Shown here piece by piece: positions 29,511 through 51,444 of a stretch of DNA of 64,000 nucleotides. The stretch is from NCBI RefSeq assembly GCF_011634835.1, contig NZ_SIRP01000001.1, forward strand, positions 1,378,216 to 1,442,215. Reading direction: 5' to 3'. The stretch's first letter is position 1; each line of letters begins with the position of its first letter. Made by a program: the position numbers and the translations under genes. The stretch comes from Isoptericola sp. BMS4. Lineage in GTDB: Bacteria > Actinomycetota > Actinomycetes > Actinomycetales > Cellulomonadaceae. Below the pieces are notes generated by a model. The model did not search any database. It was given only the letters and a program-made list of their open reading frames with translations, and was not told the DNA's origin.

Positions 29511-30893
29511 ATGCCCCCCGAGGACTGGACCCAGACCCTGACCGCGGGCCCGCTGCTGGCGATCGCCGCCGCCGCGGTCGCCCTCCTGCTCTTCCTCATC
29601 ATCAAGGTCCGCCTGCACGCGTTCCTGTCCCTGATCCTGGTCAGCCTGCTGACCGCGGTCGCCACCGGCCTGCCGAGCGGCGGCATCGTCGACGTTCTCC
29701 TGGACGGCTTCGGCTCCACGCTCGCCTCCGTGGCGCTGCTCGTCGGCATCGGCGTGATGCTGGGGCGCCTCGTCGAGACGAGCGGCGGCGCCCAGGTCCT
29801 CACGGACGTCCTGATCGCGCGGTTCGGCGAGCGGCGCGCGCCGCTCGCGCTCGGCGTCGCGTCGCTGCTGTTCGGCTTCCCGATCTTCTTCGACGCGGGC
29901 CTCGTGGTGATGCTGCCGATCGTGTTCGCCGTCGCGCGGCGCCTCGGTGGCTCCCTGCTGCTCTACGGGCTCCCGGTGGCCGGAGCGTTCTCCGTGATGC
30001 ACATCTACGTGCCGCCGCACCCCGGCCCCGTCGCCGCGTCGGAGTTCCTCGGGGCGGACGTCGGCACCGTGCTGCTGATCGGGCTCGTCGCGGCGATCCC
30101 CACCTGGTACGTGACCGCCTACCTGTTCGGCCGGCTCGCGGGCCGCCGGTTCGTGCTTCCCGTGCCGGAGATCCTGGGCCACGCCGATGCCGCGCAGACC
30201 GCGAACCCGCCGCGGTTCGGCACGGTCGTGGGCGTCCTGCTGCTCCCGCTCGTCCTCATCTTCGCCAACACCGGGCTGCAGACGGCCGCGTCGGCCGGCT
30301 GGGTCGACGCCGACAGCGCGCTGGTCTCGTGGGCCGGGATGGTCGGCTCGACGCCGGTCGCCCTGCTGATCACCGTGCTCGTCGCCGCGTGGGTGCTCGG
30401 CCGCCGCCGCGGCGTCGAGGGCACCGCGCTGGAGAAGATGCTCGACTCCGCGCTCGGGCCTGTCGCCTCGGTCATCCTCATCACCGGTGCCGGCGGCATG
30501 TTCGGCGGCGTGCTGCGGGCGTCCGGCATCGGCGACGCGCTGGCCGACGTCCTCGGCGACCTGGGGCTGCCGGTCGTCGTGGCCGGGTTCGTCATCGCCG
30601 CCGTGCTGCGCGTGGCGCAGGGCTCCGCGACGGTCGCGCTGACGACCGCGGCCGGGCTCATCGCCCCCGCCGTGGCCGCGGGTGGGTTCAACGGCGTCGA
30701 GACGGCGTCCGTGGTCGTCGCCGTCGCCGCCGGCTCCGTGGTGCTCAGCCACGTCAACGACTCCGGCTTCTGGCTGGTCGGCCGGTTCTTCGACATGGAC
30801 GTCAAGACGACGCTGCGCACCTGGACCGTCATGGAGACCCTCATCGGCGTGATGGGCTTCGCGATCGCGGGTGCCGTGTTCGCCATCGCCTGA
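29511..30893 (+). CDS. gntP: Gluconate:H+ symporter, GntP family
   Basis: 460 residues with about 12-14 hydrophobic helices. Typical GntP motifs are 'KVRLHAFLSLILVSLLTAV', 'LLFGFPIFFDAGLVVMLPIV', 'HIYVPPHPGPVAASEFLGAD', 'VLRVAQGSATVALTTAAG' and 'LSHVNDSGFWLVGRFFDMD'. It imports gluconate or a related sugar acid with protons. With gntK it forms a two-gene catabolic unit feeding 6-phosphogluconate into the pentose phosphate pathway. It ends 17 bases before a very long palindrome shared with the converging ackA gene. Confidence 0.95.
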   Translation: MPPEDWTQTLTAGPLLAIAAAAVALLLFLIIKVRLHAFLSLILVSLLTAVATGLPSGGIVDVLLDGFGSTLASVALLVGIGVMLGRLVETSGGAQVLTDVLIARFGERRAPLALGVASLLFGFPIFFDAGLVVMLPIVFAVARRLGGSLLLYGLPVAGAFSVMHIYVPPHPGPVAASEFLGADVGTVLLIGLVAAIPTWYVTAYLFGRLAGRRFVLPVPEILGHADAAQTANPPRFGTVVGVLLLPLVLIFANTGLQTAASAGWVDADSALVSWAGMVGSTPVALLITVLVAAWVLGRRRGVEGTALEKMLDSALGPVASVILITGAGGMFGGVLRASGIGDALADVLGDLGLPVVVAGFVIAAVLRVAQGSATVALTTAAGLIAPAVAAGGFNGVETASVVVAVAAGSVVLSHVNDSGFWLVGRFFDMDVKTTLRTWTVMETLIGVMGFAIAGAVFAIA

Positions 30894-30910: not shown

Positions 30911-30980
30911 GGGTGTTGTGGGTACGCAGTTGGCGTGGTTCCGGACCCGGAACCACGCCAACTGCGTACCCACAACACCC
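30911..30980. repeat. 70-bp near-perfect palindrome (34-bp arms, 2-base loop) between gntP and ackA; member of a dispersed palindromic repeat family
   Basis: Bases 30911-30944 are the exact reverse complement of 30947-30980, with only AC between them. It sits 17 bases after the gntP stop and 14 bases before the ackA stop, so it may terminate transcription from both sides. Its core words TGTGGGTACGCAG and TGGCGTGG recur in the palindrome at 49703-49826. Confidence 0.95.
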
Positions 30981-38841: not shown

Positions 38842-38882
38842 GCGGGCCAGGGTAACCACGGCTCGGGTTACAGTGGCCGCGC

Positions 38883-38960
38883 ACGGGAGCCCCGCCGGGG
38901 CTGAGAGGGCGTCGGAGCCGACCGTCGAACCTGATCTGGATCATGCCAGCGAAGGGAGCA
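38883..38960 (+). ncRNA. TPP riboswitch (THI element) in the thiOSG leader
   Basis: The conserved THI-box words are present in order: GGGAGCCCC with its hairpin, GCTGAGAG, GACCGTCGAACCTGATCTGG and CAGCGAAGGGAG. The last word contains the Shine-Dalgarno of thiO (AAGGGAG, eight bases before the ATG), so bound thiamine diphosphate should hide the ribosome binding site and shut off translation of thiO, thiS and thiG. Confidence 0.95.
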
Positions 38961-38965
38961 TCGTC

Positions 38966-40176
38966 ATGAGCGACCCCCAGCCCGACCTCGTCGTGGTCGG
39001 CGCCGGCATCGTCGGCGCCGCCGTCGCGTGGCGCGCCGCCCGCGAGCAGCTGCGCGTCGTCCTGCTCGACCCCGCGCCCGGCGACGGCGCGACCCGCGCG
39101 GCGGCGGGCATGCTCGCGCCCGTCGCCGAGTCGTGGTTCGGCGAGGAGCCCGCCGCCCGCCTGGGCGTGGCCGGCGCGGCCCGGTGGCCCGCCTTCGCGC
39201 GCGACCTCGCCGACGCGACCGGTCTCGACGTCGGCCTGCGCGCGGTCGGCACCCTCGTGACCGCGTACGACGGCGACGACCTCGGCGAGCTGCGCCGCAC
39301 CGTCGCCCTGCACCGCACCTGGGGGCTCGACTCGACCGAGCTGACCCACGCCGATGCGCGCCGCCTCGAGCCGCTGCTCGGCCCCCGGGTGCGCGGCGCC
39401 GTCCACGCGCCGTCGGACCACGTCGCCGACCCGCGCGCCGCCCACGACGCGCTCCTGGCCGCCCTCGGCGCCGCGCCCCGTGCCACGGTCGTGCGGCAGC
39501 GTGCCCGGCGGCTGCGCACCGACGCCACCGGTGCCGTCGTCGGCGTGGAGGACGCGGCGGGCACCACCCACCGCGCGCCCGCCGTCGTCGTCGCGACGGG
39601 CTGGCAGGCCGGCGACCTGCTCGACGGCCTGCCCGTGAGCGTGCCCGTGCGGCCGGTGCGCGGGCAGACGCTGCGCCTGGACGCCGGGCCCGGCGCCGCG
39701 CCGCGGCAGGTGGTGCGCGGGCTCGTGCAGGGCCGGCCCGTGTACGTGGTGCCGCGCGACGCCGGTACGGGGACGGGCCCGGGCACGACGCCGGAGCACC
39801 GCGAGGTGGTCGTCGGCGCGACCAGCGAGGAGGGCCCCGACGACCGGCGCGCCACCGCGGGCGGCGTCTTCGCCCTGCTGCGCGACGCGCGCGCCCTGCT
39901 GCCCGGCCTGGACGAGGCCGCGCTGGTCGAGGCGACCCCGCGCGCCCGCCCCGGCACCCCGGACAACCTCCCCCTCATCGGGCCGACCGGTGTCCCCGGC
40001 CTGCACCTCGCGACCGGCCACTACCGCAACGGCGTGCTGCTCGCGCCGCTCACCGCCGATGCCGTGGTCGCCGGCCTCCTGGGGCGCGACCCCGACGTGC
40101 CCGCGCTCGCCGCCGCCGACGCCGGGCGCTTTACCACCGGCAACCTCACCACCGCCCCCAACCGAGGAGCCCACCG

Positions 40177-48325: not shown

Positions 48326-49021
48326 GTGTTCGCACGCGCCCGTCTTGCCACCGCTGTCCGACTGCCTGCCGCGATCGCGGTGACCGGCGTGCTCGCCGCC
48401 GGCTGCACCGGCGGGGAGCAGGACGACGGGCAGGGCGGTGACGCCACCCAGAGCACCCAGAGCACCGGGAGCGCGCCGGCCGCGGACGCGGACCCGGCGG
48501 TCGGCACGGCCGACGCGGGTGACGGCGAGATGGCCACCAGGTCCACCGCGACACCGCACGGCTCCGGGGACGCGTGGGGCGGCGAGGTCACCACGACGCT
48601 GCGCTCCGTCGAGGTCGCCGACGGCACGATGACGGTCCGGTGGGCGCTGCGCTGGGACGACGACGAGGCGCCCGCGGACGCCGGCGCGAGCTACTACGAC
48701 ATGGGCCTTGAGCCCGTCACGACCGTGACCGACCGGGAGAGCCTCACCCTTTACCGGCCGTTCTGCACCGACGGGGCGTGGCAGCCTGAGACCGAGCGGG
48801 CCTCGGACGCCGGCCTCGAGCAGCTGCGGTGCCGGGAGTCGATGCTCGTGTCGCCGCTCGAGAAGATCCAGTTCGCGTTCCCGAACCACGGCACGGTCGA
48901 GTCCTGGGCGGTGCTGCCCGCGCCGGAGGGCAACCCGGAGAAGGTCGACGTCGCCCCGGTCGAGGGCCTGCCGATGTTCACCGACGCCACCGTCACCTAC
49001 GCCGACGGGGGTGCCGAGTGA
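48326..49021 (+). CDS. Putative lipoprotein of unknown function
   Basis: 231 residues. The signal peptide ends in the lipobox 'VLAAGC' with the lipidated Cys at residue 27, then a Gly/Asp/Thr-rich linker to about residue 70. The folded part contains 'TTLRSVEVADGTMTVRWALR' and 'LTLYRPFCTDGAWQPETERA', with two further Cys near residues 149 and 170 that may form a disulfide. GAGGAG precedes the GTG. Its stop overlaps the OmpA-like gene by four bases (GTGA), so the two surface proteins are coupled. The family is not recognised. Confidence 0.75.
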   Translation: MFARARLATAVRLPAAIAVTGVLAAGCTGGEQDDGQGGDATQSTQSTGSAPAADADPAVGTADAGDGEMATRSTATPHGSGDAWGGEVTTTLRSVEVADGTMTVRWALRWDDDEAPADAGASYYDMGLEPVTTVTDRESLTLYRPFCTDGAWQPETERASDAGLEQLRCRESMLVSPLEKIQFAFPNHGTVESWAVLPAPEGNPEKVDVAPVEGLPMFTDATVTYADGGAE

Positions 49022-49692
49022 GCGTGACCCGCCGCCGCGCGGTTCCGCTCGGGGTGGCGCTCGCCCTCGTCGCGGCCGGGGTCCCGGGCGCCACCGCGGC
49101 GGCCTCGACCCCGGACCCGTCGCCTGCAGGGTCGTCGGCGGCCGCCGAGCCGGACCCGGAGCTCGTCGCGGAGGCGGAGGAAGACCTCGCCGAGGATCGC
49201 GAGCGCGTCGAGAGCGTCGCGACGACCCCCGAGATGGCCGCCGACGCCACGATCGACCTGCGGATCGCCGACGCCACGTTCGCCCTGCACCCGGAGGACT
49301 CGACGACGGCCCTGGAGCGAGAGCGGGAGGAGGCCGACGACACCGTCGTCACGCTGACCTCCGACCTGCTGTTCGACTTCGGCTCGGCGAAGCTCTCCGC
49401 CGAGGCGAAACGAGCGGTGGAGGACCTGGCGGGCGACATCCCGCAGGGCGCGGCAGTCCACGTGGACGGGTACACCGACGCGGTGGGCGAGGAAGCGTTC
49501 AATCAGCGGCTGTCGACGAAGCGTGCGGACGCCGTCGCTGACGTGCTGTCGGGTGTGCGCGACGACCTCACGCTGAAGGTCGCGGGGCACGGCGAGTCGG
49601 ACCCGGTCGCGGCCAACGAGGTGGGCGGCGAGGACAACCCCGCCGGTCGCGCGCTGAACCGCCGCGTCGAGGTGACCTACCCGACGCAGTAG
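49018..49692 (+). CDS. Secreted OmpA/MotB-domain protein
   Basis: 224 residues. A Sec-type signal peptide (about 1-28, 'PLGVALALVAAGVPGATAAA') is followed by a Pro/Ser/Glu-rich region and a C-terminal OmpA domain (about 115-224): 'TSDLLFDFGSAKLSAEAKRA', 'VHVDGYTDAVGEEAFNQRLS' and 'GRALNRRVEVTYP'. OmpA domains bind peptidoglycan. With the lipoprotein gene it overlaps, it may form a cell-wall-anchored complex, a pairing seen in other actinobacteria. A 124-bp palindrome begins ten bases after its stop. Confidence 0.85.
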   Translation: MSVTRRRAVPLGVALALVAAGVPGATAAASTPDPSPAGSSAAAEPDPELVAEAEEDLAEDRERVESVATTPEMAADATIDLRIADATFALHPEDSTTALEREREEADDTVVTLTSDLLFDFGSAKLSAEAKRAVEDLAGDIPQGAAVHVDGYTDAVGEEAFNQRLSTKRADAVADVLSGVRDDLTLKVAGHGESDPVAANEVGGEDNPAGRALNRRVEVTYPTQ

Positions 49693-49702
49693 CCCACTCT
49701 GC

Positions 49703-49826
49703 CGTGCTGTGGGTACGCAGATGGCGTGGAATCCGGCCGGATTCCACGCCATCTGCGTACCCACGTGGGTACGCAGATGGCGTGGAATCCGGCCGGATTC
49801 CACGCCATCTGCGTACCCACAGCACG
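49703..49826. repeat. 124-bp perfect palindrome: two tandem copies of a 56-bp palindrome within 6-bp complementary flanks
   Basis: The first unit is 49709-49764 and the second 49765-49820; they are identical and each is its own reverse complement, with CCGGCCGG at the centre. CGTGCT (49703-49708) and AGCACG (49821-49826) extend the symmetry, so the whole block is one uninterrupted palindrome. It shares its sequence with the element at 30911-30980. It lies between the OmpA-like stop and the guaA start. Confidence 0.95.
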
Positions 49827-49839
49827 AGGGGGTGGCGGA

Positions 49840-49845
49840 TAGGAT
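49840..49845 (+). promoter_or_regulatory. -10 box of a leaderless guaA promoter
   Basis: TAGGAT lies six bases before the guaA GTG. The -35 region would fall on the right edge of the 124-bp palindrome, so folding of that palindrome could affect this promoter. Confidence 0.55.
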
Positions 49846-49851
49846 GACCCG

Positions 49852-51444
49852 GTGACGTCTCCCGCCACCGCACCTGCCCCAGATTCTCCCCGCCCGGTCC
49901 TCGTCGTCGACTTCGGCGCCCAGTACGCCCAGCTCATCGCGCGCCGCGTGCGCGAGGCGAAGGTCTACTCCGAGATCGTGCCGCACACGCTCACCACGGA
50001 GCAGATGCTCGCCAAGGACCCGGCGGCGATCATCCTCTCCGGGGGGCCGGCGTCGGTGTACGCCACGGGTGCGCCCTTCGTCGACCCGAAGCTGTTCGAG
50101 GCCGGCGTCCCCGTCCTCGGCATCTGCTACGGCTTCCAGGCGATGGCGCAGGCCCTCGGCGGCACGGTGGCGCAGACGGGCACGCGCGAGTACGGCGGCA
50201 CCGAGGTCGAGGTGTGCGCGGCCGGCATGCTCCTGGAGGGCACCCCCGCGAACCAGACCACGTGGATGAGCCACGGCGACTCCGTGCACGCGGCCCCCGA
50301 GGGCTTCGAGGTGCTCGCGACGTCGTCCGGCTCGCCGGTCGCCGCGTTCGAGGACGCCGGCCGCCGCCTCTACGGCGTGCAGTGGCACCCCGAGGTGAAG
50401 CACTCCGCGCACGGCCAGACCGTCCTCGAGCACTTCCTGTACACCGGCGCCGGCCTGGCGGCCGACTGGACGCCCGACAACGTCATCGCGGACCAGGTCG
50501 AGGCGATCCGCGCGCAGGTCGGCGACGCCCGCGTCATCTGCGCCCTGTCCGGCGGCGTCGACTCCGCCGTGGCCGCGGCGCTCGTGCAGAAGGCCGTGGG
50601 CGACCAGCTCACCTGCGTGCACGTCGACCACGGGCTGCTGCGCGCCGGCGAGGTCGAGCAGATCGAGCGCGACTTCGTCGCCGCCACCGGCGTGAACCTC
50701 GTCATCCGCGACGAGAAGGAGCGGTTCCTCGGCGCGCTCGCCGGCGTCAGCGACCCGGAGACCAAGCGCAAGATCATCGGCCGAGAGTTCATCCGCGTCT
50801 TCGAGGACGCGCAGCGCGACATCGTCGCCGACGCCGGTGCGCACGGCGAGGAGGTCCGCTTCCTCGTCCAGGGCACGCTGTACCCCGACGTCGTCGAGTC
50901 CGGCGGTGGCGAGGGCGCGGCCAACATCAAGTCCCACCACAACGTCGGCGGCCTGCCCGACGACCTCACGTTCGAGCTCGTCGAGCCGCTGCGCACGCTG
51001 TTCAAGGACGAGGTCCGCGCCGTCGGCCGCGAGCTCGGCGTGCCCGAGGAGATCGTCTCCCGCCAGCCGTTCCCCGGCCCCGGCCTCGGGATCCGCATCG
51101 TCGGCGAGGTGACCGCCGACCGCCTGGAGACCCTGCGCAAGGCGGACGCCATCGCGCGCGAGGAGCTCACCCGGGCCGGCCTCGACGGCGAGATCTGGCA
51201 GTGCCCCGTCGTGCTGCTCGCCGACGTCCGCTCCGTCGGGGTGCAGGGCGACGGCCGCACCTACGGCCACCCCGTCGTGCTGCGCCCGGTGTCCTCCGAG
51301 GACGCCATGACGGCCGACTGGACGCGCCTGCCCTACGACGTGCTCTCGGTGATCTCCACGCGCATCACCAACGAGGTGCCCGAGGTCAACCGCGTCGTTC
51401 TCGACGTGACGAGCAAGCCGCCGGGCACGATCGAGTGGGAATGA
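49852..51444 (+). CDS. guaA: GMP synthase (glutamine-hydrolysing)
   Basis: 530 residues. It aminates XMP to GMP, completing the branch begun by guaB. The class I glutaminase domain has '[18 protein letters not shown]', the nucleophile loop '[17 protein letters not shown]' and '[13 protein letters not shown]'. The synthase domain has the PP-loop '[16 protein letters not shown]' and the C-terminal dimerisation part has '[17 protein letters not shown]', '[17 protein letters not shown]' and '[20 protein letters not shown]'. All catalytic elements are present. Probably leaderless. It converges on the glycosyltransferase gene 25 bases downstream. Confidence 0.98.

What the first reader, a model, noticed from the sequence alone, without database searches (positions are those of the whole stretch)
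49703..49826. 124-bp uninterrupted perfect palindrome built from two tandem 56-bp palindromic units
The block 49703-49826 equals its own reverse complement over all 124 bases, with no loop. It consists of two identical 56-bp palindromes (49709-49764, 49765-49820) inside 6-bp complementary flanks, as if a 68-bp palindrome had duplicated its core. Perfect palindromes of this size are usually unstable in bacteria, so its survival suggests selection, very recent formation, or an assembly error. It sits ten bases after a stop codon and its right edge is where the -35 of the guaA promoter should be, so cruciform formation could link supercoiling or termination to GMP synthase expression.
Basis: seen in the sequence. 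Interest (0 to 1): 0.85.

Follow-up and report, generated by a model that had tools for sequence, protein, structure and literature searches.

The report
Doubled hairpin: assembly artefact, real family
The giant 124-base palindrome is most likely a genome-assembly error that doubled one shorter hairpin, but that hairpin belongs to a real family of fixed-length hairpins found near the ends of genes in Isoptericola and related bacteria.

Summary
The 124-bp loop-free palindrome is in the sequence as described, but its doubling is very probably an assembly artefact. Among the family members examined in this draft, four have a true loop-free palindrome over 62 bp (64, 66, 68, 76). All four are broken at exactly 62 bases per side: three are doubled to exactly 124 bp with periods 56, 60 and 48, one is split by 100 N. 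Both 62-bp ones are intact. A de Bruijn assembly with k=63 would give this. In the complete genome of Isoptericola sp. AK164, five such palindromes of 64-70 bp are all single. The real object should be one 68-bp palindrome: a 62-nt element plus three extra pairs per side. About 48 loci here carry such elements: ends GYTGTGGG...CCCACARC, lineage-specific stems, variable tips, 60-62 nt, usually within 50 bp of a stop codon. Orthologous copies show compensatory change. The family occurs in Isoptericola, Promicromonospora, Cellulosimicrobium and Antribacter, and in 1 of 361 sampled genomes of other families of the order. It resembles REPINs, but no RAYT was found in genomes that carry it. Likely role, inferred: bidirectional 3'-end hairpin.

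The parts
49703..49826 (.). 124-bp perfect palindrome as assembled; doubling judged an assembly artefact
49706..49823 (.). Outer limits of the family element in the doubled draft: left end GCTGTGGG at 49706-49713, right end CCCACAGC at 49816-49823; on one unit these ends bound a 62-nt element
   Evidence: pairs beyond these ends are near chance level
49709..49764 (.). First 56-bp palindromic unit; RNA hairpin -54.9 kcal/mol, z -12.8
49765..49820 (.). Second identical 56-bp unit, probably not in the chromosome
48997..49692 (+). OmpA-like gene (start uncertain) that ends ten bases before the block
49840..49845 (+). TAGGAT, -10-like TANNNT hexamer 6 nt before the guaA GTG; suggests a leaderless guaA mRNA
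49852..51444 (+). guaA, glutamine-hydrolysing GMP synthase
   Evidence: NF000848, 759 bits, cut-off 400

Best explanation
Two layers. (1) The 124-bp object is a short-read assembly artefact. In a de Bruijn graph with k=63, a loop-free perfect palindrome of 64 bp or more ends each contig exactly k-1=62 bases inside it; the two contig ends were then abutted (here and at two other sites) or left as a gap (one site). The chromosome should carry one 68-bp palindrome, so the draft would be 56 bp too long here. (2) That palindrome is one of about 48 loci in this genome of a dispersed family: 60-62-nt hairpins with ends GYTGTGGG/CCCACARC, lineage-specific stems and variable, often self-complementary tips, usually just after a stop codon. 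Shown: architecture, position, taxonomic range in the genomes searched, same positions in close relatives, compensatory change. Inferred: the hairpin forms in RNA and ends or protects transcripts arriving from either side, and some unidentified protein reads the conserved ends and length.
For: Artefact: three doubled sites have different periods (56, 60, 48) but the same 124-bp total, and the N-gapped site has left tail = reverse complement of right head over exactly 62 bases; members with 62 bp (L024, L280) are intact, and five loop-free palindromes of 64-70 bp in the complete AK164 genome are single. Family: 44 exact-end places in the own genome against 0 for the reversed pattern; 18 of 221 genomes of the family have 10 or more places with at most 1 control match each. 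Hairpin: 13 of 26 pairs changed on both sides over 20 own copies, 96.9% of cells paired, 0 of 500 shuffles as high on either measure; 43 both-side changes that keep pairing in 15 orthologous pairs. Position: 41 of 47 own elements within 50 bp of a predicted stop, 23 convergent, 1 divergent; AK164 34 of 50 convergent, 2 divergent.
Against: No reads were seen and the assembler is unknown. No U-tract follows the hairpin and the terminator scan found nothing. Fixed length and conserved ends are more than a plain terminator needs. In the 15 orthologous pairs 36 changed base pairs are unpaired in at least one genome, and some AK164 tips do not pair fully (L254). Two AK164 elements fall inside predicted ORFs.
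Confidence: 0.7

Rival explanations
1. The family is a REPIN-like set of small non-autonomous mobile elements whose conserved ends are read by a mobilising enzyme other than a RAYT; position at gene ends reflects where insertions are tolerated.
For: Conserved ends, fixed length and a variable pairing middle are just what was described for REPINs (PMC3116915, passages read). Several stem types with the same ends coexist in the own genome. Copy number is patchy, 0 to 88. The copy at guaA is absent from the 16 relatives read.
Against: Y1/RAYT profile PF01797 was found in 2 of 221 genomes, neither of which has elements; the E. coli control rang. 12 of 13 sampled I. sediminis elements keep their place in AK164. 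Genes near a cluster of elements in AK164 look ordinary from their reading frames, though they were not run against a family library.
Confidence: 0.3
2. The ends and outer stem are a double-stranded DNA site for a protein (chromosome organisation, or a marker of the organism's own DNA) whose dialect changes by lineage.
For: Near-constant ends and 60-62-nt length with lineage-specific stems; own and AK164 share at least five places although the stems differ.
Against: Pairing of the tips is kept by compensatory change, which a DNA site of this kind would not need. Enrichment between convergent genes points to a role in transcripts. No candidate protein was looked for.
Confidence: 0.15
3. The 124-bp palindrome is real: recent tandem duplication of the core in the living chromosome.
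For: It stands in the assembly without N.
Against: Three independent duplications would have to be exactly centred and give exactly 124 bp each, only at sites longer than 62 bp, with a fourth such site at a gap with the same 62-base limit. None of the five comparable palindromes in complete AK164 is doubled.
Confidence: 0.04

Closest known systems
REPINs (inverted REP doublets mobilised by RAYT; Pseudomonas and others)
   Same: Two conserved inverted ends, a middle constrained in length and pairing, compensatory changes, extragenic, many copies (PMC3116915, passages).
   Different: No Y1/RAYT gene found in the element-bearing genomes; shorter (60-62 nt); a consistent REP-like mini-hairpin inside each half was not seen by eye and was not tested statistically.
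GTAG- and CGTC-tagged REP superfamilies
   Same: Palindromic repeats next to 3' ends of ORFs, mostly between convergent or tandem genes; the CGTC kind also lacks a dedicated transposase (PMC3733652, passages).
   Different: Tag is GYTGTGGG and is part of the paired stem; the word Actinobacter does not occur in that paper's main text.
Intrinsic bidirectional transcription terminators
   Same: Strong hairpin directly after stop codons, often between convergent genes.
   Different: No U-tract; near-constant length and ends.
Integron attC sites (features recalled, from no call)
   Same: Palindromic sites of about 60 nt after stop codons.
   Different: Recalled attC end consensus does not fit these ends; integrases were not searched.

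Membership tests
REPIN / REP-RAYT system | RAYT (Y1 tyrosine transposase) gene in the genome | tested here: not met
   PF01797 in 2 of 221 genomes; own genome and AK164 none; E. coli control positive; the two positives have 0 elements
REPIN / REP-RAYT system | Inverted conserved ends with a middle of kept length and pairing | tested here: met
REPIN / REP-RAYT system | Short hairpin with unpaired GTAG or CGTC tag in each half | tested here: inconclusive
   GTGG occurs in the ends; no internal hairpin in a constant register seen by eye in the arms; no statistic was run
REPIN / REP-RAYT system | Evidence of movement | tested here: inconclusive
   guaA copy absent from 16 relatives, but 12 of 13 I. 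sediminis copies keep their place in AK164
Intrinsic terminator | GC-rich hairpin shortly after a stop codon | tested here: met
Intrinsic terminator | U-tract after the hairpin | tested here: not met
   0 sites in 49600-49900; only this locus was scanned
Intrinsic terminator | Transcripts end there | not testable with these tools
   no RNA data
Assembly artefact (k-mer collapse of a palindrome) | Breaks at a constant length at every palindrome over that length, none below | tested here: met
   four of four over 62 bp broken at 62; two of two at 62 bp intact, among the own family members fetched
Assembly artefact (k-mer collapse of a palindrome) | Reads show a single unit | not testable with these tools
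   no reads held

The most novel reading that the evidence does not exclude
A new class of dispersed palindromic element in Isoptericola, Promicromonospora and related genera: conserved 8-bp ends, 60-62-nt length and lineage-specific stem dialects, kept at the same gene ends while the stem is rewritten in a compensated way, maintained by a trans-acting factor that is not a RAYT. It would be an actinobacterial counterpart of REPINs, or of uptake-sequence dialects, that also serves as a bidirectional 3'-end signal.
Probability: 0.35. Interest if true: 0.75.

Novelty: new variant of a known kind. Interest (0 to 1): 0.45.

Why it matters
It suggests a warning: perfect palindromes just longer than an assembler's k can be doubled in drafts with a telltale total of 2(k-1), so giant palindromes in drafts should be checked for that. 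Beneath the artefact lies a family with natural replicates, tens of loci in each of several species, in which hairpins can be watched evolving in place while ends and length stay nearly fixed. Which factor reads such repeats, and how a stem dialect spreads through a genome, becomes testable in genomes where no RAYT was found.

Tried and rejected
Real tandem duplication: rejected on the constant 124-bp total and the 62-base limit. RAYT-driven REPIN: not supported. Phage origin: the pattern gave four contigs in viral contigs, and the matched stretches lack a paired stem beyond the pattern's ends by eye. Early signs of a one-species family were misleading: an exact pattern of the window's stem gave 0 in genome contigs, where the own genome may be left out, and BLAST hit 1 of 18 genomes of the genus; the covariance model and the end pattern showed the wider family. 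Weak model hits also include ordinary GC-rich hairpins without the ends. Copying of host flanks into the palindrome: pairs beyond the element ends are near chance (own p 0.26 over 42 elements, AK164 p 0.03 over 50), so not claimed. Sharing of positions between genera: same-end matches did not clearly exceed opposite-end matches (by eye), so not claimed. One search read ten minus-strand guaA loci in the wrong orientation; its guaA results are void and one search replaces them. In one search the guaA start of L035 was misplaced, and G016 (L046) lacks the region. Literature: searches listed no paper that I recognised from title or abstract start as describing these elements (one search held 77 papers, 15 listed); this is not proof of absence.

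Full report
What is there. Window 49703-49826 is a perfect 124-bp palindrome made of two identical 56-bp palindromes inside 6-bp complementary flanks. It lies between an OmpA-like gene, stop at 49690-49692, and guaA, 49852-51444. The window is bases 1378216-1442215 of contig C1 (4.32 Mb) of a 47-contig, 4.43-Mb draft. The genus is Isoptericola, inferred because contigs of same-genus genomes match named Isoptericola records in length; G006, for example, equals Isoptericola sp. AK164, NZ_CP119106.1.

The doubling. BLAST of the block against its own genome gave 44 alignments at 22 places. Two other places (L010, L011) are doubled in the same way. Their periods are 60 and 48, against 56 here, yet each total is exactly 124 bp, two arms of 62. 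Taking off one unit leaves true palindromes of 68 (window), 64 and 76 bp. A fourth place, L020, is cut by 100 N; its left tail equals the reverse complement of its right head over exactly 62 bases, and its palindrome is 66 bp by my count on the sequence printed there. Two members with loop-free palindromes of exactly 62 bp (L024, L280) are intact. A palindrome of 64 bp or more contains whole 63-mers shared by both approaches, so a de Bruijn graph with k=63 ends each contig 62 bases inside, and abutting two such ends gives 124 bp. The assembler is not known; this is inference from the fingerprint. Control: among 50 elements fetched from the complete AK164 genome, 7 have loop-free palindromes with arms of 20 or more; five of these are 64-70 bp and all are single.

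The family. The pattern GYTGTGGGN{38,48}CCCACARC matches the own genome at 44 places, 0 for the reversed control. One doubled locus is counted twice, so these are 43 loci; five more known loci lack the exact ends or are doubled or gapped (window, L011, L013, L020, L025), which makes about 48. Several stem types coexist: the window's (TACG..GATGGCG), a 60-61-nt type (CGYGAGTTTGGCGC), and one with GAGACACGCC. In 221 genomes of the taxonomic family 51 have a match; the reversed control gives 0-3 per genome, so one or two matches are no evidence, but 18 genomes have 10 or more with at most 1 control match (my count of the rows). The highest are Promicromonospora soli (88) and P. panici (82), with AK164 56 and I. 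sediminis 28. A stricter pattern over 396 genomes of the order hit 8: seven Isoptericola and one genome of another family with two places (G427), i.e. 1 of 361 genomes outside the family; one other genome had a control match. That sample held no Promicromonospora hit genomes. Named hits are Isoptericola, Promicromonospora, Cellulosimicrobium and Antribacter (the list was cut at its limit).

Structure and evolution. On 20 own copies 13 of 26 pairs changed on both sides and 96.9% of cells pair, 0 of 500 shuffles as high on either; the count of further pair types was reached by 2 of 500. Lengths, with 54-64 nt allowed, are 61 (13) or 62 (37) in AK164 and 60-62 in the own loci fetched. Lengths of the Promicromonospora sample were fixed by the search pattern and count for nothing. 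Of 13 distinct I. sediminis elements sampled, 12 lie at the same gene end in AK164, some judged on one flanking gene only; of 5 I. chiayiensis elements 3 lie at the same place. In these 15 pairs 43 base pairs changed on both sides and stayed paired, 14 changed on one side and stayed paired, and 36 changed with pairing lost in at least one genome; both-side changes are 54 in all against 28 in shuffles, maximum 39 of 2000. The three innermost pairs were left out. Own against AK164 (47 own elements, 50 of the 56 AK164 ones): six own elements have a same-end partner, one of them weak at 55% identity, three with both flanking genes matched, although the stems are of different types. Two opposite-end matches were also seen, one next to a same-end pair. 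About 0.8 would be expected if 3300 gene ends were equally likely, which is an assumption; P of 5 or more 0.0014.

Position. In the own genome 41 of 47 elements examined are within 50 bp of a predicted stop codon; 23 are convergent, 22 tandem, 1 divergent, 1 without a left gene. In AK164 43 of 50 are within 50 bp by my count; 34 convergent, 12 tandem, 2 divergent, 2 inside predicted ORFs. Convergent against divergent gaps with and without elements: p 2e-10 in AK164, 3e-5 in the own loci, on loci picked because they hold elements. Genes were predicted by a simple script of mine, so some distances are wrong.

The guaA locus. Neither GYTGTGGG nor CCCACARC lies in the 200 bp read before guaA in 16 relatives, one of which had a misplaced start. 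In eight relatives the OmpA-like gene stands next to guaA (seven by BLAST, L032 by eye) without an element between, so this copy looks specific to this lineage. A TANNNT hexamer stands 6 nt before the GTG in the 15 relatives with a placed start (by eye), consistent with a leaderless guaA mRNA; the element's right end lies where a -35 would be.

Mechanism. Position, hairpin strength (56-nt core -54.9 kcal/mol, z -12.8) and compensatory change argue for a hairpin that works in RNA, for both genes where genes converge. The missing U-tract argues against the textbook intrinsic terminator, so 3'-end protection or factor-assisted termination is as likely. Near-constant length and ends suggest that a protein reads the element. 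It works much like a REPIN (PMC3116915 and PMC3733652, passages read), but the defining RAYT was not found, so it is not filed as one.

Verdict. The reported object is an assembly artefact with probability about 0.95. The family beneath it is real (about 0.97), and the literature searches made here did not show it described. A bidirectional 3'-end role is the best guess (about 0.55).

Noticed in passing
window 30915-30976: A second member of the same family in this window, 62 nt with ends GTTGTGGG/CCCACAAC and an imperfect centre, 19 bp after a predicted stop codon.
   Followed up: partly
window 38873-38974: TPP riboswitch aptamer at Rfam gathering level, 57 bits.
   Followed up: no
window 49840-49854: guaA seems to be transcribed without a leader: TANNNT 6 nt before the GTG, also in 15 relatives with a placed start.
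   Followed up: partly
L020:2001-2220 (G000:C1:1316056-1316275): A 100-N scaffold gap sits exactly at a family member; the two contig ends are reverse complements over 62 bases.
   Followed up: yes
L302 (G000:C1:3850808-3851909) and L272 (G006:C1:2850259-2851480): A neighbouring pair of elements about 1.1 kb apart occurs at the corresponding genes in the own genome and in AK164, with different stem types; I. sediminis L142 has such a pair too.
   Followed up: partly
G427:C1:890930-890991 and 4439088-4439149: Two elements of the same architecture in a genome of another family of the order: an older origin or transfer.
   Followed up: no
L136, L162, L177, L184: Methylobacter MAGs carry REP-like inverted repeats that also begin with TGTGGG (GCGCGAATTTATTCGCGC type); resemblance to known REPs is recalled, not tested.
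   Followed up: no
window 29827-29848: 22-bp loop-free palindrome, the next longest in the window.
   Followed up: no
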